Positions 24,912-60,064 of a stretch of 64,000 nucleotides of DNA are shown one piece after another (within the stretch, counting starts at the first letter, position 1; each line of letters starts with the position of its first letter). The position numbers and the translations under genes were made by a program. The DNA comes from a virus, in the IMG/VR virus record IMGVR_UViG_3300032296_004087, positions 1 to 64,000 of that record; one strand, 5' to 3'. A model generated the notes under the pieces. It was given only the letters and a program-made list of their open reading frames with translations. It was not told the origin of the DNA and did no database searches.

Positions 24912-25667
24912 ATGAAAAAAGTATTAAGAGAGGAAATCCTCCGACAAAAAAAATTAATGAACCTACAAGAACAGAATCAGTCTTGGGGTGATGCATTATA
25001 TGATTACATGTCCTCAGGACTCAAAAGTATATTTTTTGGGGACGATGACGAGGATGAAAAAAAACCAAAAAAGCTGGAGGACAAGATTGGTTCCTTTGAA
25101 AAAATTGCTAAAGAACTTATCGATGAAATTGAAGGTGGGTATTTCCATCCTATAATGGTCAAAGGTGGTAGAGGATTTCCCAAAGGTAGTCGTTCTATGG
25201 GAGATTCGGGTGAAACTATGTTCGGTATCGACAGAAAACACGGGGCGGAAATTAATACTTCCTCAGAGGGTAGACAATTTTGGGGTTTAATCGACGCAGC
25301 AAACGCATCTAAAAAATGGCCTTGGCTTTTCATGGGGGGCAATTTAGAAGGTCCTTTGAAGAATTTGGCTTCTCGGATGATTAAAAACAATTTTAACAAA
25401 TTTGCTGATAGATATTTGACTTCTGACGCAAAAAAAATTGTTCAAAGTGATGAAGGTTTACTTACCCATTTTATCTATGCAACATGGAATGGACCAGGTT
25501 GGTTTAATCAATTTGCTAAGAGTATTAATTCACAAGTAGAAAAAGGGGTTACTGACACTGAAAAATTAATGAAAATTGGTTTACAAGATAGAAAAAACTC
25601 TAACAATAAATTGATTTCATCCTCGGCTGAAAAAATTGAAAAAATTACAGGTACAAATTTAGTATAA
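24912..25667 (+). CDS. Leader-tagged muramidase-like protein (GH108-like)
   Basis: 251 aa. N-terminal leader MKKVLREEILRQKKLMNLQE then Q, a L-Q-E site at residue 20. Residues about 65-110 contain DEIEGGYFHP, a Gly/Lys-rich loop and GDSGETMFGIDRKHG, resembling the E-G-G-Y...D-x-G-G-x-T-x-x-G-I of GH108 N-acetylmuramidases, with Glu74 as likely acid. Later LTHFIYATWNGPGWFNQFAK matches the C-terminal helix region of lysozyme-like folds. It probably cuts peptidoglycan during entry if carried in the virion. Confidence 0.75.
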   Translation: MKKVLREEILRQKKLMNLQEQNQSWGDALYDYMSSGLKSIFFGDDDEDEKKPKKLEDKIGSFEKIAKELIDEIEGGYFHPIMVKGGRGFPKGSRSMGDSGETMFGIDRKHGAEINTSSEGRQFWGLIDAANASKKWPWLFMGGNLEGPLKNLASRMIKNNFNKFADRYLTSDAKKIVQSDEGLLTHFIYATWNGPGWFNQFAKSINSQVEKGVTDTEKLMKIGLQDRKNSNNKLISSSAEKIEKITGTNLV

Positions 25668-25668
25668 G

Positions 25669-27204
25669 ATGATACTGAGCGAAGGGAGAAAAGAAGAAAT
25701 TTTATCAAAATACATTATACCAATACTCGCTGAAAAAAAATTGGTAAAAGAGTATTTGAGTGGTGGTGCTTTAGGTTCAATTTATGATTATCTGATAACA
25801 GATTTATTCATTATTGATACTAATTTCAAGTATTTGGATGACATATTAAGAAATTATTATCTTGAAAATACGCCTTCTGAAAATATACAACCATTAAGTT
25901 TTGAAGATGCTAAACGGTATGTAATGAACAGGAGAGATGAGATGGACCGTTTAGTTGAAGCTCTCAAATTTTTTGATGTACACAATAAAAAATATAAACA
26001 CCAAGAGTTTAAAAAATATGCGGATAATGACTTATTCTATTTTTTGAAAGAAACGGATGGTCTTAGGGAAGAATTTAACAAAAAAAAGGGTGAAAAAGAA
26101 GTTGAAAAAGTCTTTGAGAACGAAAGAATATTAGTTATAAGACCAAAGACATACGAAGCATCTTGTGTTTATGGGGCTGGAACAAGATGGTGTACATCAT
26201 CCAAATCAACTTCAAGTCACTTTGAAAATTACACTGAAACAGGGTCACTTTATTATTTTATAACTAAAGGGGTTGATTCCTCCAACAAATTTTACAAAGT
26301 TGCTCTTTATAGAAATGATGTGGGTCTGGATAAATGGTATGACGCAACTGACCGCGAATTAGGTGAAAACGAAATTGAACTCTTAACCTCTGCTTATGGT
26401 GATACACTCAAAAATGTTGATGAGGATTTTGATAAATTAAAACCTAATCCTCTGTTGAATGAAATTTTTCCAAAGAATTTTGCAATAGCTTTCGAAAGCC
26501 GACTCATGTCAGGTAAACCTCCCATTGATTTGAATGTCAATTTCAATGTTAAAGAAACAATTGAACCCTCTATTTCTAAAGTTAAATGTTCTATTTACCA
26601 AATTGAAGGAACAAATGAAAAAATTGTTGGAAATTACATGTTAATTATAAACATGAATTGTACCCGTTCAACTTGTACTTTTGGTGTAGTGTTTACCGAA
26701 CCTACCACCAACTCTGTACTTTTGGGGGAAAATCAATTTATAATGTACCTGAATGTTGTTGGTAAATCATCAGAAGTTCTAAGACAACAAACTTTCCGAA
26801 AAATTTTCACGTTCATTGTAATTCAATTAAGAAACAATCCTAAGTACTTGAGTAGTTTAGTCGGAAGAGATGAAATCTTGGTTTCTGCCGCCAATAAAGG
26901 TTATTCCTTTAAATTTCGTGATAGAGGTTTAATAAAAAAACTTACTGATTGGTTGGATTCGGGAAAAAAAACAGACAAAGTTGATTTTCTACTGGGTACA
27001 AACATCTTAAAAAAACAGGGTAACAGTTTGATTTCTACTTCAACAGGTAGTGAAATCACCCCAAGAGGATACCTATCAGGATTTTTTCAAGCAGCAAAAT
27101 CTGCGGGAATCATAGACTATAAGAGAGTCGGTAGAAAGACTCTTATGACTAAAGGTCCAAACTATAGAAAGTTTATGAAGGGTTCCAAACTCAGATATAT
27201 CTAA
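25669..27204 (+). CDS. Leader-tagged protein with YGAxTxWC domain, 511 aa
   Basis: Begins MILSEGRKEEILSKYIIPIL-AEK (L-A-E site, residue 22), 2 nt after the muramidase gene. Residues about 155-200 hold ILVIRPKTYEASCVYGAGTR, then WCTSSKS, HFENYTETGSLYYFI, which match the protein at 39486 (TCKYGAKTKWC, HYDMGSLGILI). The shared core C-x-YGA-x-T-(R/K)-WC with a following G-S-L is a conserved phage domain I cannot name; the paired Cys and acidic residues suggest an enzyme. The C-terminal 300 residues are unrecognised, with a possible wHTH at the end (SGFFQAAKSAGIIDYKRVGR). Confidence 0.72.
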   Translation: MILSEGRKEEILSKYIIPILAEKKLVKEYLSGGALGSIYDYLITDLFIIDTNFKYLDDILRNYYLENTPSENIQPLSFEDAKRYVMNRRDEMDRLVEALKFFDVHNKKYKHQEFKKYADNDLFYFLKETDGLREEFNKKKGEKEVEKVFENERILVIRPKTYEASCVYGAGTRWCTSSKSTSSHFENYTETGSLYYFITKGVDSSNKFYKVALYRNDVGLDKWYDATDRELGENEIELLTSAYGDTLKNVDEDFDKLKPNPLLNEIFPKNFAIAFESRLMSGKPPIDLNVNFNVKETIEPSISKVKCSIYQIEGTNEKIVGNYMLIINMNCTRSTCTFGVVFTEPTTNSVLLGENQFIMYLNVVGKSSEVLRQQTFRKIFTFIVIQLRNNPKYLSSLVGRDEILVSAANKGYSFKFRDRGLIKKLTDWLDSGKKTDKVDFLLGTNILKKQGNSLISTSTGSEITPRGYLSGFFQAAKSAGIIDYKRVGRKTLMTKGPNYRKFMKGSKLRYI

Positions 27205-36583: not shown

Positions 36584-37183
36584 ATGACTAAAATAAAATC
36601 ACTAATACTATTAAGCCTTGTAAGTTTAATTTTTATTTCCGCACAAGCTTTAAAAGATGTTAAAGTTAAAAACCAAATTTTTGAGGTAAATTACTCTCAA
36701 TCATTAGAACAACCACTTGAACTCACTTATCGTTCTATTAATAGACCTACAAATGTAAATCGTGGTTCTATGGATTTTAAAACAGAACCTAATGTTCATA
36801 CTTCAGACCATAACGATTATGCAAAAAATATTTGGGATAAAGGACACTTAGCTCCCGCAGCTACTTTCTCAGATAATATGGATAATCTCAAAACTACTTT
36901 CTCATATCTTAATTGTGCCTTACAAGACCAATACTTAAACAGGGGGGAATGGAGATTACTTGAAGAACAAGAAAGAAAATGGGATGACAAAGAAAATCTA
37001 ACAGTAAGGATAATATTGGATTTTGATAAGAGTTCTTTAGTTATCCCAACAGGTGCAATGGTACCTAAGGGTTTTACCAAACACATTTATTTCGAAACAT
37101 CAAAGAAGTGGGAATGTTATTACTTTCCAAATGAAAAACCAACAAAAAAATGGAATGAACACAAAATTAAGTGTGTTCACTAA
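36584..37183 (+). CDS. DNA/RNA non-specific endonuclease (secreted)
   Basis: 199 aa. Signal peptide with ISAQ end, then NIWDKGHLAPAATFSD (85-100), the NUC1 D-(R/K)-GH active site with catalytic His88, and SYLNCALQDQYLNRGEWRLL for the metal-binding Asn region. Exported nuclease that would degrade extracellular or periplasmic nucleic acid. ATG at 36584; a TTG 2 codons upstream is possible. Confidence 0.82.
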   Translation: MTKIKSLILLSLVSLIFISAQALKDVKVKNQIFEVNYSQSLEQPLELTYRSINRPTNVNRGSMDFKTEPNVHTSDHNDYAKNIWDKGHLAPAATFSDNMDNLKTTFSYLNCALQDQYLNRGEWRLLEEQERKWDDKENLTVRIILDFDKSSLVIPTGAMVPKGFTKHIYFETSKKWECYYFPNEKPTKKWNEHKIKCVH

Positions 37184-37788
37184 GAATTCTGAACTTCAAG
37201 TTTTAACCAATTATAAAACACATTACTGATTTCATCAGGTGAAGTGAGTTTCAAGTCTTTAATTTGGGATTTTAAGTATTCTATAGTTTTCTCAAATGTT
37301 GAGAGGGGCATTTGTTTGTAAAAACCATTTGGTATGATAATATTTTTTAAAAAACCATTTTTTTGTAATTCTCTTAATTTTCTTGTTGCAAATTCATCTG
37401 CAACCAATTCAATTTCTTTCATCAATTTTGCAGCTTCTCCAATGGACATTTCATTTGTGTAAAGTTTCAACATTTTTTCTTTACCATATTTTTTAAATTG
37501 ATATTGGTGGGCAAATTCATGAAATACAGAAAATAAGAACAAAGGTAGTGGTTGTTTAAAAACATTCTCACTAAAAATAATACCATTAATTAGTGCAACT
37601 GCAATACCCATTCGCAGTTTACCCAATTCAATTTTTTTTACACCTGATTTTTGTATATGATTTTCAATAACATCCCAAAACTCAATTATTTCGGGGTAAG
37701 ACGCAAAACTTTTTAATTTAAACTCATCTAACCCTTCAATTTGTTCTGTTAGCAACTTAAGTTGAGATTCATTTACAATAATTTTCAT
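37180..37788 (-). CDS. Leader-tagged zinc metalloprotease-like protein
   Basis: 202 aa. Leader MKIIVNESQLKLLTEQ (L-T-E site, residue 15). HEFAH (90-94) in FLFSVFHEFAHQYQFKKYGK is a zinc HExxH, and IELVADEFA (E132) about 38 residues later gives a likely third ligand, as in gluzincin-like peptidases. Promoter element TATTTATA (37794-37801) 5 nt upstream. Inferred to be injected and to cut a host protein. Confidence 0.75.
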   Translation of the reverse strand: MKIIVNESQLKLLTEQIEGLDEFKLKSFASYPEIIEFWDVIENHIQKSGVKKIELGKLRMGIAVALINGIIFSENVFKQPLPLFLFSVFHEFAHQYQFKKYGKEKMLKLYTNEMSIGEAAKLMKEIELVADEFATRKLRELQKNGFLKNIIIPNGFYKQMPLSTFEKTIEYLKSQIKDLKLTSPDEISNVFYNWLKLEVQNS

Positions 37789-39485: not shown

Positions 39486-39995
39486 ATGAAAATAGTATTG
39501 AAGGAAACTCAATTTAATATTTTATTAGAAAAATATAAAATCGGGGATGAGGAAAGAGTGAAACTCATGGAAACCGATGATTTTCTGTTGGTAGTACCTT
39601 TAACTCACAATGCGACATGTAAATATGGTGCTAAAACAAAATGGTGTGTAACTGAAAAAGACCCCGATATGTTTGAAAGACATTATGACATGGGTAGTTT
39701 GGGGATATTAATTGTCAAAAATCCTGAAGTAATAGAGACCTTGGGTAATGAAAAATTTGCATTTTATGTGAATCGTCCCACCTCGATTGAAAACGCGAGA
39801 AACATCGAAAAGATTTTAGTTTATGATGATTCTGACCATTTTATTCCTTCACGGAGTTTTCTTAATTTTGCGGACAATTTAGGGTATCTTCCTCAAATCG
39901 AACAAGCAATGAAAATTTTTATAACATACGCCGATAAAAAATTTAACCCTGAAAATTCAGAAATGATAAGAAGGGGTTTACGAAATCCATTTTGA
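39486..39995 (+). CDS. Leader-tagged YGAxTxWC domain protein, 169 aa
   Basis: Leader MKIVLKETQFNILLEKYKIG (L-L-E site). Then FLLVVPLTHNATCKYGAKTK-WC and HYDMGSLGILIVKNPEVIET, the same core as in the 511-aa protein at 25669. Small enough that this domain is nearly the whole protein. Followed after 1 nt by a ParB-like gene, so it is part of a two-gene unit. Confidence 0.72.
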   Translation: MKIVLKETQFNILLEKYKIGDEERVKLMETDDFLLVVPLTHNATCKYGAKTKWCVTEKDPDMFERHYDMGSLGILIVKNPEVIETLGNEKFAFYVNRPTSIENARNIEKILVYDDSDHFIPSRSFLNFADNLGYLPQIEQAMKIFITYADKKFNPENSEMIRRGLRNPF

Positions 39996-39996
39996 T

Positions 39997-40518
39997 ATGA
40001 TTTTAAAAGAAGAGATTAAAAGAATCAAAGAAGTCATGGGACTCATTTCTGAACAAGACAAAAAAAACTTGGACAAGTTCATTATGGTTTATCCCAAAGG
40101 AATGGGTGTGGAATATGGTGAAGAGATTCCAACATCAGAGACTTATTACATTCCCTTGGGGATGGTCAAGGAAAATGAGATTTTCAAAGATGAGGATTAT
40201 TTTATGTCGAATGAAAATGTTCAGGATATGATTAAAAAATTGAGTAAGGGAAGTGAATTAGAACCCATTATGGTTATTCAACATCCTGAAAACGAAGATG
40301 TTTTCCTAATTATGGATGGACACCATAGAAAATTTTCTTATGAAAAGGCAAACAAGTTAGAGATTCCAGCCAGAATTGTAGAATACGAAAATATACTTTT
40401 AGCCGATGAAAACGGAGAAATTGTTTCGTCGTTAGATAAGGTTCGAAATGATATGGAGTTTCTTAGAAATTACTTTGTTACCCCTGACGGAACTGCAGAA
40501 TATTCAAAAGAAGATTAA
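39997..40518 (+). CDS. Leader-tagged ParB-like protein
   Basis: 173 aa. Leader MILKEEIKRIKEVMGLISEQ (I-S-E site, residue 19) is near-identical to those at 62996 and 63538. Central SKGSELEPIMVIQHPENEDV and IMDGHHRKFSYEKANKLEIP match the ParB/sulfiredoxin-like core (D-G-x-H-R). Such domains can be NTPases, nucleases or DNA-spreading proteins; activity unclear. Confidence 0.75.
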   Translation: MILKEEIKRIKEVMGLISEQDKKNLDKFIMVYPKGMGVEYGEEIPTSETYYIPLGMVKENEIFKDEDYFMSNENVQDMIKKLSKGSELEPIMVIQHPENEDVFLIMDGHHRKFSYEKANKLEIPARIVEYENILLADENGEIVSSLDKVRNDMEFLRNYFVTPDGTAEYSKED

Positions 40519-40910
40519 AGTCTTGCACCATCAAAATACCAATTAACAAATGGGTATTGACTTGCTAACTCTTGGATGTAAAGAAAAACTTCGTCTCTCA
40601 TTTCATCATCCCCTTCATCATCATTATCGTTTGCTGTAACATTTACATGAACGTCACCATTAATTGTGTGAACATTAAAAGTCATTGAGTTGTCTAAAAA
40701 GTACTCAAACTTTCGGTTTTGAAATCCATAAACTTCAATTTCATCTCCAAGAACCAACATTCTACCAATCTCAACAATATCTTGTTTCAGAAGAAAATCG
40801 GCAAACATTAAAGTGTTCTCTGATGGGTCCCCAACGATATTGTTTTCATCTGCAGAGTTAAATTGTTCGTGAATTGTTCTGTATTGTGACTCGGTAATGA
40901 TGAGTTTCAT
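40515..40910 (-). CDS. Leader-tagged acidic protein, 131 aa
   Basis: Leader MKLIITESQYRTIHEQFNSA (I-H-E site, residue 15). Rest is acidic (ANDNDDEGDDEMRDEVFL) and ends VNWYFDGARL. A paralogue, also on the minus strand, is at 47786. No known family. Convergent with the ParB-like gene, 4-nt overlap. Confidence 0.7.
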   Translation of the reverse strand: MKLIITESQYRTIHEQFNSADENNIVGDPSENTLMFADFLLKQDIVEIGRMLVLGDEIEVYGFQNRKFEYFLDNSMTFNVHTINGDVHVNVTANDNDDEGDDEMRDEVFLYIQELASQYPFVNWYFDGARL

Positions 40911-47785: not shown

Positions 47786-48208
47786 TTAAATAGATTCTCC
47801 CTCAATATACCAATTGATGGAAGGGGTTCTTTTTGCGACTTCTCTAATGTAATTAAAAATTTGATTGAGATGGCGATAATAAAGTTTATAACCTTCATTT
47901 TCACCATCTCCTTCAACATTAACATGAATTTCTCCGTCAAAATCGTCAACCTTGAATATGATTTGATTATCCATGAAATAATCAACAAATAAATGTTCGG
48001 GGAAAGCAAAAATTGTGATTACATCATCGTAAACATTAATAAGTTCCAATTCAATTATTCCATTTTTTACGAGTAAATCTACAACAGTTAATGTTTCTGG
48101 GGATTGTGTTCCTATAAAAGGATTTTCATCATTTAAATTTTCTTCACCTTCAAAATCAAATTGTTCCTTTAGGTTTTGATATTGGGATTCTGTAATTAGG
48201 TATTTCAT
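47786..48208 (-). CDS. Leader-tagged acidic protein, 140 aa
   Basis: Leader MKYLITESQYQNLKEQFDFE (L-K-E site, residue 15). Clear paralogue of the protein at 40515: both have an acidic stretch, a DxDG-x-(V/I)HVNV segment and a NWY end (here SINWYIEGESI). Unknown fold. Confidence 0.7.
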   Translation of the reverse strand: MKYLITESQYQNLKEQFDFEGEENLNDENPFIGTQSPETLTVVDLLVKNGIIELELINVYDDVITIFAFPEHLFVDYFMDNQIIFKVDDFDGEIHVNVEGDGENEGYKLYYRHLNQIFNYIREVAKRTPSINWYIEGESI

Positions 48209-56825: not shown

Positions 56826-57617
56826 ATGAAGATTGTCATCTCAGAGGGCCAGTACGAAAGGTTGATTGAAACCGAAGAGGAGGAGAAAGTTCTTCGTATA
56901 CCATCTTTGAAAATTTTCGATGATGATTGGTTTGTTTTACAAAAGTTTTTGGAGTTAAAGGGTAATCCACCTTATTCTATTGGGGGAGATTTGGACTTAT
57001 CAGAATTACCAATTCAATCATTGGGAAACCTTCAATCAGTTGGTGGGTTTTTGGATTTGAATGAAACACCAATTAAATCCCTTGGAAATCTTCAAACAGT
57101 TGGTGGAGATTTGGACTTGGAAGGAACACCAATTCAATCATTGGGAAACCTTGTATCAGTTGGTGGGACTTTGGATTTAAAAGGAACACCAATCAAATCT
57201 TTGGGAAACCTTAAATCCGTTGGCGGGGATTTATCTTTGGTAGGAAGAGCAATTGAATCTTTGGGAAACCTTGTATCAGTTGGTGGGGATTTATATTTGC
57301 AAGAAACACAAATCGAATCTTTAGAGAACCTACAATCAGTTGGGGGAAAGTTGGATTTGAATTGGTCAAAAATCCGTTCTTTGGGAAACCTTCAATCTGT
57401 TGGTGGGGGTTTGGATTTGGAAAAAACACCAATTCAATCTCTTGGAAACCTAACATCCGTTGGTGGGTATTTGGATTTGAGATATTCACGAATTAAATCC
57501 TTGGGAAACCTTCAATCAGTTGGTGAGTTTTTGGATTTGAGAAAAACACCACTATCTAAGATGTACACTAGAGAACAAATCCGAGAAACGGTAAATGTTG
57601 CGTATATCTATTTATAA
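56826..57617 (+). CDS. Leader-tagged leucine-rich repeat protein A (9 repeats)
   Basis: 263 aa. Leader MKIVISEGQYERLIETEEEE (L-I-E site, residue 15), a conserved neck (VLRIPSLKIFDDDWFVLQKF, LELKGNPPYS), then nine units of about 20 residues, consensus VGGDLDLxxTPIxSLGNLQS, and a C-cap TPLSKMYTREQIRETVNVAY-IYL. It is a solenoid, probably protein-binding, inferred to be packaged. Its last codons ATC TAT TTA TAA contain the next gene's TATTTATA element. Confidence 0.85.
   Translation: MKIVISEGQYERLIETEEEEKVLRIPSLKIFDDDWFVLQKFLELKGNPPYSIGGDLDLSELPIQSLGNLQSVGGFLDLNETPIKSLGNLQTVGGDLDLEGTPIQSLGNLVSVGGTLDLKGTPIKSLGNLKSVGGDLSLVGRAIESLGNLVSVGGDLYLQETQIESLENLQSVGGKLDLNWSKIRSLGNLQSVGGGLDLEKTPIQSLGNLTSVGGYLDLRYSRIKSLGNLQSVGEFLDLRKTPLSKMYTREQIRETVNVAYIYL
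57609..57616 (+). promoter_or_regulatory. TATTTATA element inside a stop codon
   Basis: Formed by the last codons (Tyr-Leu-stop) of gene A; 4 nt before the ATG at 57621. Confidence 0.6.
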
Positions 57618-57620
57618 GTT

Positions 57621-58052
57621 ATGAAGATTGTCATCTCAGAGAGCCAATATAACAAGTTGATTGAATCCGAAGAGGAGCAGAAAGTTCTTCGTATACCATC
57701 TTTGAAAATTTTCGATGATAATTGGTTTGTTTTACAAAAGTTTTTGGAGTTAAAAGGTAATCCAACTTATTCAGTTGGTGGGGATTTGGATTTGCAAGGA
57801 ACTCCAATCAAATCTCTTGGAAACCTTCAATTTGTTGGTGGGTATTTGTCTTTGCAAGACACATCAATTGAATCTCTCGGAAACCTAAAATCAGTTGGTG
57901 GGTATTTGAATTTGGCATATACATCAATCGAATCTCTTGGGAACCTTCAATATGTTGGTGGGGATTTGAGTTTGCATGGTACACCCTTATCGATTTACAC
58001 TAGAGAACAAATCCGAGAAATGATAAATGTCGAAGGTAGAATTTATAAATAA
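57621..58052 (+). CDS. Leader-tagged leucine-rich repeat protein B (3 repeats)
   Basis: 143 aa. Same leader (MKIVISESQYNKLIES) and neck, only three SLGNL units, and a C-cap TPLSIYTREQIREMINVEGR. Tandem paralogue of A by near-identical nucleotide sequence in the 5' part. Start is 3 nt after A's stop. Confidence 0.83.
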   Translation: MKIVISESQYNKLIESEEEQKVLRIPSLKIFDDNWFVLQKFLELKGNPTYSVGGDLDLQGTPIKSLGNLQFVGGYLSLQDTSIESLGNLKSVGGYLNLAYTSIESLGNLQYVGGDLSLHGTPLSIYTREQIREMINVEGRIYK

Positions 58053-58055
58053 ACC

Positions 58056-58610
58056 ATGAAGATTGTTATCTCAGAGAGCCAATACCAAAGGTTGATTGAA
58101 TCCGAAGAAGAACAGAAAGTTCTTCGTATACCATCTTTGAAAATTTTCGATGATGATTGGTATGCTTTACAAAAGTTTTTGGAGTTGAAAGGTAATCCAA
58201 CTTATTCAGTTGGTGGGGATTTGGATTTGCGTGATTTACCAATTAAATCCTTGGGAAATCTTAAATCCGTTGGTGGAGATTTATATTTGGAAAGAACACC
58301 AATTAAATCATTGGGAAACCTTCAATCCATTAATGGAGATTTGTATTTGGGAGGAACAATAATAAAATCTCTTGGAAACTTAACATATGTCGGTGGGTTT
58401 TTGGATTTGAGAAGAACACCAATTGAATCCTTGGGAAACCTTCAATCCGTTGGTGGAGATTTGGATTTGTTTGGGGCTCAAATTAAATCATTGGGAAACC
58501 TTCAATCCGTTGGCGGGTATTTGGATTTTAGAAGTACACCCTTATCTGATATGTACACTAAAGAACAAATCCTACAAATGGTAAATGTTGGTGATGATAT
58601 CTATTATTAA
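58056..58610 (+). CDS. Leader-tagged leucine-rich repeat protein C (5 repeats)
   Basis: 184 aa. Leader MKIVISESQYQRLIESEEEQ, neck, five units, C-cap TPLSDMYTKEQILQMVNVGD. The preceding element is the variant AATTTATA (58040-58047), and the start is 3 nt after B's stop, so this copy may depend on read-through. Confidence 0.83.
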   Translation: MKIVISESQYQRLIESEEEQKVLRIPSLKIFDDDWYALQKFLELKGNPTYSVGGDLDLRDLPIKSLGNLKSVGGDLYLERTPIKSLGNLQSINGDLYLGGTIIKSLGNLTYVGGFLDLRRTPIESLGNLQSVGGDLDLFGAQIKSLGNLQSVGGYLDFRSTPLSDMYTKEQILQMVNVGDDIYY

Positions 58611-58613
58611 ATC

Positions 58614-59288
58614 ATGAAGATTGTTATCTCAGAGAGCCAATTTAACAGGTTGATTGAAACCGAAGAAGAGCAGAAAGTTCTTCGTATACCATCTTTGAAA
58701 ATTTTCGATGATGATTGGGATGTTTTGCAAAAGTTTTTGGAGTTGAAAGGTAATCCACCTTATTCCTTGGGTGGGGATTTGTTTTTGATGGGAACACCGG
58801 TTAAATCCTTGGGAAACCTTGTATCCGTTGATGGGTATTTATACTTGGAAGAAACACCAATTAAATCATTGGGGAACCTTCAATCTGTTGGTGGGTATTT
58901 GGATTTGAGAGGAACTCCAATCAAATCCTTGGGAAACTTAATATCAGTTGGTGGGGATTTGGTTATGGATGATACGCCAATTAAATCCTTGGGAAACCTT
59001 CAATTCGTTGGTAACAGGTTGTATATGCCAGGAACAAAAATAGATTCTTTGGGAAACCTTAAATCTGTTGGTGGGGATTTGTCCTTACAAGGAAGTGAAA
59101 TACAATCTTTAGGAAACTTAACAACAGTTGGTGGTGAGTTAAATTTAATCTCAACAAAAATCAATTCTCTTGGTAAATTAAATTTTGTTGGTAAAAATTT
59201 ATATTTACAACGAACACCTTTATCTAATGAGTACACTGAAGAACAAATCCGTAAAATGGTGGATGTTAAGGGTGAAATCTATTTATAA
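58614..59288 (+). CDS. Leader-tagged leucine-rich repeat protein D (7 repeats)
   Basis: 224 aa. Leader MKIVISESQFNRLIETEEEQ, neck, seven units including divergent ones (MPGTKIDSLGNL, LISTKINSLGKL), C-cap TPLSNEYTEEQIRKMVDVKG-EIYL. Its end again encodes TATTTATA. Confidence 0.83.
   Translation: MKIVISESQFNRLIETEEEQKVLRIPSLKIFDDDWDVLQKFLELKGNPPYSLGGDLFLMGTPVKSLGNLVSVDGYLYLEETPIKSLGNLQSVGGYLDLRGTPIKSLGNLISVGGDLVMDDTPIKSLGNLQFVGNRLYMPGTKIDSLGNLKSVGGDLSLQGSEIQSLGNLTTVGGELNLISTKINSLGKLNFVGKNLYLQRTPLSNEYTEEQIRKMVDVKGEIYL
59280..59287 (+). promoter_or_regulatory. TATTTATA element inside a stop codon
   Basis: Built from the Tyr-Leu-stop codons of gene D; 4 nt before the ATG at 59292. Confidence 0.6.
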
Positions 59289-59291
59289 GTT

Positions 59292-59567
59292 ATGAAAATA
59301 GTAATAACTAAACCACAACTTTCCATTTTTTTGAGAAGAAGATTTTCTGCAGAGGACCTTTTATGGATTGTTAATGATGTTAAGGAAATGATTGACGAGG
59401 GTTATGGTGTGGAATCTGCGGTGTATGATGGAATTAGGGAATTTATTAAAAGTAAAAATTTTATTGACATAGATGAATTCGGTGATGAACAATCCTATTG
59501 GAATTCTTATTTGAAGTATGAGATTGCACTTGTTTCTTATGTGAAATCTGAGTTGGGTTTGGATTAA
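59292..59567 (+). CDS. Leader-tagged FLRRR protein, 91 aa
   Basis: Leader MKIVITKPQLSIFLRRRFSA, a divergent copy of the MKIVISESQ leader, without the leucine-rich repeats. Rest (EDLLWIVNDVKEMIDEGYGV, ESAVYDGIREFIKSKNFIDI) is helical. It resembles the protein at 62037 (both have FLRRR). Confidence 0.65.
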   Translation: MKIVITKPQLSIFLRRRFSAEDLLWIVNDVKEMIDEGYGVESAVYDGIREFIKSKNFIDIDEFGDEQSYWNSYLKYEIALVSYVKSELGLD

Positions 59568-59629
59568 AAAACATCTGCTAAGAATTACACTAAAGAGGAC
59601 ATGTTGGAAGTGATATCTATTTATAAGTT
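59568..59629 (+). pseudogene. Remnant 3' end of a leucine-rich repeat gene
   Basis: After the stop of the previous gene the text reads SAKNYTKEDM, like the C-cap LSNEYTEEQ of gene D; then in another frame VGSDIYL-stop, like the ends of C and D. So a C-terminal piece survives with a frameshift, but no body. Confidence 0.6.
59618..59625 (+). promoter_or_regulatory. TATTTATA element in the remnant
   Basis: Conserved from the lost gene's stop codon; 4 nt before the ATG at 59630. Confidence 0.6.
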
Positions 59630-60064
59630 ATGAAGATTGTTATCTCAGAAAGCCAATACCAAAGGTTGATTGAAGTCGAACAAGAGCAAAAAGTTCTTCA
59701 TATTCCTTCATTGAAAGTTTTTGGTTTGGATAGATTGGAAGCTTGGAACAACCTGCAAGAATTTCTGGAAAGAAAAGGTAATCCACCTTATTCTATTGGT
59801 GGTAATTTGGTCTTAGCAGAATTACCAATTGAATCTCTTGGAAACCTAAAATCAGTTGGTCAGGCTTTGGTTTTGTCAAATTCACTAATCAAATCTTTGG
59901 GTAATCTCGAATCCGTTGGTGATGATTTGTATTTAAACAGAACACCAATTCAATCTCTCGGAAATTTGAAATTCGTTGGTGGAGATTTGTATTTGAGAGG
60001 AACACCAATTTCCCAAAGTCCAATTACGGGTGTTAAAGTTGGGGGAGGAATTATGAGAGGGTAA
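59630..60064 (+). CDS. Leader-tagged leucine-rich repeat protein E (3 repeats)
   Basis: 144 aa. Leader MKIVISESQYQRLIEVEQEQ, more diverged neck (VLHIPSLKVFGLDRLEAWNN), three units, and a different C-terminus (SPITGVKVGGGIMRG). It is the outer, oldest-looking member of the array. Confidence 0.8.
   Translation: MKIVISESQYQRLIEVEQEQKVLHIPSLKVFGLDRLEAWNNLQEFLERKGNPPYSIGGNLVLAELPIESLGNLKSVGQALVLSNSLIKSLGNLESVGDDLYLNRTPIQSLGNLKFVGGDLYLRGTPISQSPITGVKVGGGIMRG

What the first reader, a model, noticed from the sequence alone, without database searches (positions are those of the whole stretch)
39486..39995. Stand-alone YGAxTxWC domain shared with the protein at 25669
C-x-YGA-x-T-(K/R)-WC...G-S-L is the only similarity between a 169-aa and a 511-aa tagged protein. 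Conserved Cys, Trp and Gly suggest an enzyme or binding domain, apparently undescribed.
Basis: seen in the sequence. Interest (0 to 1): 0.55.

Follow-up and report, generated by a model that had tools for sequence, protein, structure and literature searches.

The report
Phage-packaged domain, distant PcfJ relative
A small phage protein turns out to carry a widespread, unnamed viral protein domain, distantly related to a domain of unknown function from plasmids and other phages, behind a short leader that looks like a label for loading the protein into the virus head and delivering it to the host with the viral DNA.

Summary
In detail: the 169-aa and 511-aa proteins share one domain (blastp E 3e-10), and the motif occurs twice in the window, never in 100 shuffles. 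It has no Pfam or NCBIfam family, only PHROGs of unknown function. Trp and the second Cys are constant (61 of 61); the first Cys is not (46 of 61), so there is no conserved Cys pair. It is a distant relative of the PcfJ domain, itself of unknown function: a PcfJ profile puts 18 of these proteins in its top 20, against at most 8 in 100 shuffled profiles. Most start with a leader containing L/I-x-E, like T4 capsid-targeting propeptides, and one relative (PA5oct) is annotated as a virion protein by ESI-MS/MS. The front is shared, the tails vary. Best reading: head cargo delivered at infection. Packaging is inferred for the window's proteins; the activity is unknown. New variant of a known kind.

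The parts
39486..39530 (+). Leader of the 169-aa protein: 15 residues ending L-L-E, predicted capsid-targeting propeptide
   Evidence: Sequence. T4 propeptides of internal proteins are 10-19 residues, and gp21 cuts after L/I-X-E (PMC9026906 sections 2.5 and 2.6). In 10 relatives whose upstream stretch was printed, the domain starts right after I-x-E (8) or V-x-E (2). Cleavage not shown.
39555..39839 (+). YG (PcfJ-related) domain, about residues 24-118
   Evidence: AlphaFold2 model from 96 sequences, pLDDT 84.6, pTM 0.79, strands 24-29, 33-38, 70-77, 90-96, 111-113
39618..39647 (+). Signature C-K-YGA-K-T-K-WC (residues 45-54); W53 and C54 constant in the family
39849..39980 (+). C-terminal helical tail, residues 122-165
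   Evidence: DSSP on the model
25669..25683 (+). Leader of the 511-aa protein: M-I-L-S-E before G-R
   Evidence: Sequence; the E-G-R is invariant in 20 aligned full-length sequences. Family statistics count sites starting at residue 4 or later, so this one, at residue 3, is not in that count.
25684..26097 (+). Helical N-terminal region shared with most long relatives
   Evidence: N-terminal parts of 130 proteins fall in 9 clusters, one of 116
26101..26373 (+). YG domain of the 511-aa protein, residues 145-235; motif at 26164-26193
26476..26763 (+). Beta-rich domain, residues about 270-365
   Evidence: AlphaFold2 model pLDDT 83.1, pTM 0.41
26908..27201 (+). Winged-helix-like C-terminal domain, residues 414-511
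   Evidence: VIA-align rows over this part are mostly winged-helix proteins (LmrR Z 6.7, CadC 6.5, HpaR 6.4), below the Z 8 mark
39997..40518 (+). Next gene, one base after the finding: tagged ParB/SerK-like protein, possible partner
   Evidence: PHROG ParB-like E 9.3e-5; NCBIfam SerK 6.9e-6 and parB_part 2.5e-5, both far below cut-off; free serine kinase chain E 0.005
24912..25667 (+). Tagged gene directly upstream of the 511-aa protein, function unknown
   Evidence: no Pfam family at E 1 or better, no NCBIfam at 0.1

Best explanation
The 169-aa protein is a phage head cargo protein: a 15-residue leader that targets it into the prohead and is removed by the prohead protease after L-L-E, followed by a compact domain (here 'YG domain') that is a distant, phage-specialised relative of the PcfJ domain. 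The mature domain is ejected with the DNA and acts in the host at the start of infection. In the 511-aa protein and most long relatives a leader, a helical spacer and the YG domain form a shared front end for an exchangeable tail. The most likely role of the domain is recognition or modification of a host component through a pocket around the constant Trp-Cys, the conserved Tyr, the two Lys and the D-x-x-D. Shown here: the domain, its spread, the distant PcfJ kinship, the leader statistics, the shared front and variable tail. Taken from a record's annotation: virion presence of one relative. Inferred: packaging and cleavage of the window's proteins, ejection, and any activity.
For: Domain real and widespread. 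Mostly viral: a scan of 84,980 prokaryote genomes with the strict core pattern found 2 stretches and confirmed 1 relative, on a 383-kb contig that by eye looks phage-like. PcfJ kinship: 8 PcfJ-like proteins among Foldseek ranks 22-36 in the viral library; PcfJ is the commonest sub-threshold Pfam hit, 12 of 96 members, next family 4; profile alignment score 18.3 against 300 column-shuffled nulls, mean 9.9, maximum 16.6; PcfJ profile top 20 holds 18 YG proteins, shuffled mean 2.1, maximum 8 of 100. Both families keep G-x5-C. Leader: L/I-x-E starting in residues 4-30 in 137 of 157 YG proteins, 283 of 746 control ORFs, 0.39 in shuffles; 65 of 80 after thinning at 50% identity. Virion: PA5oct gp279 is annotated 'structural protein, ESI-MS/MS' and follows the terminase gene. 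Cargo-like fusions: Phage_lysozyme (E 2.2e-22) in L054 and DUF5872 (1.1e-12) in L100, 2 of 10 relatives scanned. Shared front, variable tail: among 130 proteins, domain 1 cluster, N-terminal part 9, tails 42.
Against: No Peptidase_S77 (T4-type prohead protease) or Gp23 match was found in the 117-kb record, which may be a fragment. Around six clustered YG genes of Salicola phage SCTP-2 no head gene is annotated in 15-60 kb, though nearly all genes there are 'hypothetical'. Direct profile comparison was weak: E 0.36 with full alignments, 0.013-0.016 with trimmed ones. The reciprocal search did not bring PcfJ proteins to the top. In one search at least one of 100 shuffled profiles gave a single YG protein a higher score (14.5 bits) than the real profile did (11.3); the evidence there is the ranking, not the scores. 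In one search one member hits an unrelated family (FimA4_C) with a better E-value (0.0014) than the best PcfJ hit (0.0032). No PcfJ hit that I saw passes Pfam's cut-off. Leader counts come from related proteins, the controls include unverified ORFs, and the 169-aa protein itself is outside the 157 (too short a front). MIJ3 virion MS of major bands reported four proteins, two tail proteins, a tail fibre and the capsid protein (PMC6892783, passages). No biochemical activity is tested.
Confidence: 0.6

Rival explanations
1. The YG domain is a packaging or assembly chassis: it holds the protein in the prohead core, and the variable tail is the functional cargo.
For: The front end is shared while tails fall into 42 clusters among 130 proteins; PA5oct gp279 is annotated as a virion protein and lies beside the terminase gene.
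Against: Related PcfJ domains sit on plasmids such as pCF10; the 169-aa protein has almost nothing besides the domain; constant Trp-Cys and a nearly constant Asp suggest a pocket.
Confidence: 0.22
2. It is a non-virion early protein with host-takeover or counter-defence function made after infection; the leader is not a packaging signal.
For: No head gene is annotated around the SCTP-2 cluster, though most genes there are unnamed; many copies per genome (up to 8) fit arms-race expansion.
Against: L/I-x-E leader enrichment, similar leaders on several other window genes, virion annotation of a relative.
Confidence: 0.15
3. A member of the GNAT acetyltransferase fold.
For: VIA-align 2 top row RimL, Z 5.2, rmsd 4.0 over 98 residues, and several other acetyltransferases.
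Confidence: 0.03

Closest known systems
PcfJ domain (Pfam PF14284; PcfJ of conjugative plasmid pCF10 and many phages)
   Same: Predicted fold similarity, G-x5-C spacing, by eye the order of elements (strand, glycine turn, Cys, Tyr, strand ending in Lys/Arg, strand), sub-threshold sequence matches, profile ranking above shuffles
   Different: PcfJ has EG-x4-HC and later T-x-E, Q and N; the YG family has YG-x-x-T-x-WC, K and D-x-x-D; YG proteins carry leaders and their own N-terminal region; no hit seen passes the PcfJ cut-off
T4 internal head proteins (IPI-III, Alt) with capsid-targeting sequences
   Same: Short N-terminal leader ending L/I-x-E; several unrelated proteins of one phage share leader types
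   Different: Mature parts not shown to be related; cleavage and packaging not shown here; no gp21-family protease in the 117-kb record
Polyvalent proteins (PMC5512222; start of abstract and passages seen)
   Same: Relatives join the domain with lysozyme or DUF5872 or DUF4116 repeats in one chain
   Different: The window's 169-aa protein has one domain; PcfJ is not mentioned in that paper's main text
PHROG 17056 and 28193
   Same: Both window proteins match (E 7.5e-6 to 3.7e-8); PHROG 28193 fits an SCTP-2 protein end to end
   Different: Unannotated, unknown function

Membership tests
PcfJ (PF14284) | Score above the curated Pfam cut-off (25 bits) | tested here: not met
   P0001 and P0002: no PcfJ match at E 1 or better; relative L034 16.3 bits; 12 of 96 members match, best E only 0.0032 (which lists no bit scores for them)
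PcfJ (PF14284) | Signature E-G-x4-H/N-C-V/L, then Tyr, T-x-E, Q and N | tested here: not met
   G-x5-C is kept, but E is Y/F, H is W, and T-x-E/Q/N are replaced by K and D-x-x-D
PcfJ superfamily (distant kinship only) | Profile similarity above shuffled controls | tested here: met
   0 of 300 shuffles reach the score; 18 of top 20 against maximum 8 in 100 shuffles; reciprocal search not supportive
PcfJ superfamily (distant kinship only) | Same predicted fold | tested here: inconclusive
   PcfJ-like models are the next tier in the viral library, best E 6.8e-3, prob 0.99, TM (query) 0.36; no solved PcfJ structure was found by profile
T4-type capsid-targeted internal protein | Short N-terminal leader ending L/I-x-E | tested here: met
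   15 residues ending L-L-E; enrichment in the family over controls
T4-type capsid-targeted internal protein | Cleaved after the leader and present in the mature head | not testable with these tools
   Only the PA5oct relative is annotated as seen by ESI-MS/MS
T4-type capsid-targeted internal protein | A gp21-type protease in the same genome | tested here: inconclusive
   None in the 117-kb record, which may be a fragment
Polyvalent protein | Two or more disparate activities in one chain | tested here: not met
   For the 169-aa protein itself (no Pfam domain; one compact domain); met in relative L054 with a lysozyme domain
GNAT acetyltransferase | Significant structural match | tested here: inconclusive
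   Z 5.2 at best, no Foldseek PDB match at E 0.001

The most novel reading that the evidence does not exclude
Large phages run a widespread modular delivery system: a head-targeting leader and a PcfJ-related YG core serve as the shared front of proteins whose tails are swapped (leucine-rich-like and DUF4116 repeats, lysozyme, ParB/SerK-like, winged helix), often with several paralogues per genome, each delivering a different host-directed function at DNA entry; the YG core itself acts on the host through its constant Trp-Cys.
Probability: 0.35. Interest if true: 0.75.

Novelty: new variant of a known kind. Interest (0 to 1): 0.52.

Why it matters
If right, it names a common but unannotated viral domain, ties two function-less PHROGs to the function-less PcfJ domain of plasmids and phages, and gives a sequence rule (leader plus YG core) for listing candidate head-packaged, host-delivered proteins in uncultivated phages. 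Cultivable Pseudomonas phages of the PA5oct group carry it (one copy each in PA5oct and Paride), so the idea can be tested directly.

Tried and rejected
Known-family explanations: Pfam, NCBIfam and PADLOC gave nothing above cut-off for the two proteins. Solved structures: none by profile, none by Foldseek at E 0.001; GNAT rows in VIA-align are too weak to keep. A plasmid home: the 511-aa protein's domain finds no match in 72,556 plasmid records. Cys-pair metal or disulfide pocket: rejected because the first Cys is missing in 15 of 61. A proven fusion link with the neighbouring ParB-like gene: relative L099 carries a DGNHR motif in the same chain, but blastp is only E 0.43 and Pfam finds nothing there at 0.01, so it stays a lead. 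First crude profile comparison with PcfJ was not significant; the reciprocal search with the YG profile ranked a PcfJ ORF only tenth among non-YG ORFs. A muramidase reading of the gene at 24912 (from memory of a motif) found no support. Literature (listings only, held library only): a search for PcfJ mostly returned worm plasmids; narrower ones gave 0, 1, 2 and 2 papers, none with a functional study of PcfJ in title or the part of the abstract shown (I opened none of these). One consensus form of the core peptide is in no held paper.

Limits: most family sequences were gathered with the motif itself, so invariance in A1 is partly built in; one cut segment (L114) of 95 was left out of A1. Of the 21 records used for the profile-based set, 16 were picked through the DNA motif and one through a genome scan with the core pattern, and all 21 because they carry the domain, so the first-Cys figure is an upper bound and 21 of 21 is no prevalence. 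Two of the 21 (G087, G096) look like near-duplicates from their scores. In one search, 16 of 17 PcfJ proteins were used (a near-copy left out). In one search two true PcfJ ORFs (L158, L026) were taken out before counting the top 20, for real and shuffled profiles alike; with them in and the untrimmed profile, one search gives 16 of 20. In one search 71 ORFs were reduced to 61 distinct sequences; the other copies of G087 were not fetched. In some searches 195 ORFs were reduced to 157 distinct ones with at least 60 residues before the domain, which leaves out the 169-aa protein; only 130 with at least 80 residues after it were clustered.

Full report
What is there. The ORF at 39486-39995 encodes 169 residues. 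It shares a single region with the 511-residue protein at 25669-27204: 20 of 51 residues identical, E 3e-10 for that comparison. The DNA pattern for the core occurs twice in 64 kb and in none of 100 shuffles. A search of the 117-kb record that holds the window finds only these two copies at E 1 or better.

How widespread. With earlier loci and the window these gave 135 ORFs with the motif, the window's own and near-identical copies included, and 97 after thinning at 80% identity. In 21 records chosen because they carry the domain, a profile search found 68 copies, 1 to 8 per record. Among 50,697 phage records the 169-aa protein finds 1 (Salicola phage SCTP-2) at E 0.01; the domain of the 511-aa protein finds 14 at E 1 or better: SCTP-2, 11 Pseudomonas records of the PA5oct group and Caulobacter phage CcrBL9 (two records). 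No plasmid record matched. In 84,980 prokaryote genomes the strict core pattern hit 2 stretches, of which 1 was confirmed, on a 383-kb contig in a Chitinophagales assembly whose neighbours look phage-like by eye; looser variants would have been missed. Foldseek in the viral library also finds models from Marseillevirus LCMAC201 and LCMAC202, so the domain probably reaches giant viruses.

What is conserved. In 61 distinct copies aligned to the profile, Trp and the following Cys are constant (61 of 61), the Gly nearly so (60), then Thr (57), Tyr (57), an Asp (56 of 58) and two Lys (51 of 61 and 50 of 60). The Cys pair is therefore not the core; the W-C is.

Fold. AlphaFold2 on 96 sequences gives a confident model (pLDDT 84.6, pTM 0.79). 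No solved structure matches well: Foldseek best E 0.43, VIA-align best Z 5.2, no profile match in the PDB. In the viral library 20 matches have E 0.001 or better, among them the PA5oct structural protein and CcrBL9. The next tier holds 8 'PcfJ-like' proteins among ranks 22 to 36, the best at E 6.8e-3.

PcfJ kinship. This lead was tested four ways. (i) Of 96 members scanned against 24,736 Pfam models, 12 hit PcfJ below threshold, best E 0.0032; the next family has 4 members, and one member hits FimA4_C at 0.0014. (ii) Trimmed profiles score 18.3; 300 column-shuffled PcfJ profiles average 9.9 and reach 16.6 at most; the reversed profile gives 9.4. (iii) A PcfJ profile from 16 sequences, run over 2,404 ORFs (187 of them YG), puts 18 YG proteins in its top 20 after two true PcfJ ORFs are removed; 100 shuffled profiles average 2.1 and reach 8, the reversed one 5. 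The best single YG score is 11.3 bits, and at least one shuffled profile reached 14.5, so the ranking carries the argument, not the scores. (iv) Both families keep the spacing G-x5-C. Against it: raw profile E-values are modest (0.36; 0.013), the reciprocal search is silent, and no hit seen passes the PcfJ cut-off. I call it distant kinship, not membership. The function of PcfJ is unknown to me, and the literature listings offered none. Two phage loci carry true PcfJ genes on the same stretch as YG genes (L158, L026).

The leader. The 169-aa protein begins with 15 residues ending L-L-E. T4 internal head proteins have 10-19-residue propeptides that target them to the prohead, and gp21 cuts after L/I-X-E (PMC9026906, sections 2.5 and 2.6 read). 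Across 157 distinct YG proteins with at least 60 residues before the domain (the 169-aa protein is not among them), 137 have L/I-x-E starting in residues 4-30, against 283 of 746 other ORFs and 0.39 in shuffled N-termini; the stricter L/I-x-E-(G/S)-(R/K) is in 78 of 157 against 3 of 746. After thinning at 50% identity 65 of 80 keep L/I-x-E and 27 of 80 the strict form. In the closest relatives of the 169-aa protein, most of them longer, the domain begins directly after such a site: of 10 printed, 8 have I-x-E and 2 V-x-E. By eye, another module often ends there. That is what a protease-cut head polyprotein would look like, but no cleavage is shown here.

Virion evidence. PA5oct gp279, which carries the domain, is annotated as a structural protein by ESI-MS/MS and lies just after the terminase gene. 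In the MIJ3 paper (passages only) four virion proteins were identified from major bands: two tail proteins, a tail fibre and the capsid protein. In SCTP-2 six YG genes cluster at 30-42 kb; no head gene is annotated in 15-60 kb, but nearly all genes there are hypothetical. The 117-kb record itself shows no Peptidase_S77 or Gp23 match.

Architecture. Among 130 proteins with a tail of at least 80 residues, the domains form 1 single-linkage cluster, the N-terminal parts 9 (one of 116) and the tails 42. DUF4116 repeats occur in an SCTP-2 protein (E 3.1e-17) and in L108 (1.3e-12). In two relatives of the 169-aa protein a Phage_lysozyme domain follows (L054, 2.2e-22) or DUF5872 precedes (L100, 1.1e-12); the Pfam scan of 10 relatives gave one further, sub-threshold hit (Recep_L_domain in L103) and nothing at 0.01 for six. 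Leucine-rich-like repeats and a nucleotidyltransferase-like motif are seen by eye only. The 511-aa protein ends in a winged-helix-like domain.

Reading. The simplest account is a head-packaged, protease-matured protein delivered with the DNA, carrying a phage version of the PcfJ domain. For the window's proteins packaging is inferred; for the family one member is annotated as a virion protein. What the domain does is open; a host-directed binding or modifying role fits its constant W-C and D-x-x-D, while a role as packaging chassis fits the shared front and variable tails. My estimates: distant PcfJ kinship about 0.85, head cargo about 0.7, enzymatic activity of the domain about 0.4.

Noticed in passing
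window 56826-60064: Five neighbouring tagged ORFs (56826, 57621, 58056, 58614, 59630) share very similar N-terminal stretches of about 30 residues (leader plus EEEQKVLRIPSLKIFDDD-like part; 59630 the most different): a tandem family with a common front end.
   Followed up: no
window, e.g. 37180-37788 (-), 40515-40910 (-), 47786-48208 (-), 14209, 37831, 46289, 62996, 63532: By eye, at least three further leader types recur on otherwise different ORFs, often ending near L/I-x-E, EQ or EE; my crude pattern flagged 10 of 94 ORFs. A set of candidate head cargo.
   Followed up: partly
window 39997-40518 and L099:3-1880: The gene right after the finding is ParB/SerK-like and tagged; relative L099 has a DGNHR ParB-like motif in the same chain as its YG domain. 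Possible functional pair, similarity too weak to prove.
   Followed up: partly
L158 and L026: True PcfJ genes (E 5e-15 and 2e-8) lie on the same phage stretches as YG genes.
   Followed up: no
plasmid and phage loci L133-L140, L141: PcfJ genes are preceded by PcfK-like genes in 7 of the 8 records fetched; in the eighth (L137) an 'AcrIIA9 family' gene follows. In pCF10 PcfJ is likewise next to a gene annotated as Cas9 inhibitor AcrIIA9 family.
   Followed up: no
L040:10691-13132: A YG protein whose tail contains a nucleotidyltransferase-like motif (PGGFKPPHKGH), seen by eye; Pfam gave no match at 0.01.
   Followed up: no
Marseillevirus LCMAC201/202 proteins in BFVD: Three giant-virus proteins, two of them annotated as ankyrin repeat protein and glutamate-tRNA ligase, match the YG model at E 1e-6 to 4e-6.
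   Followed up: no
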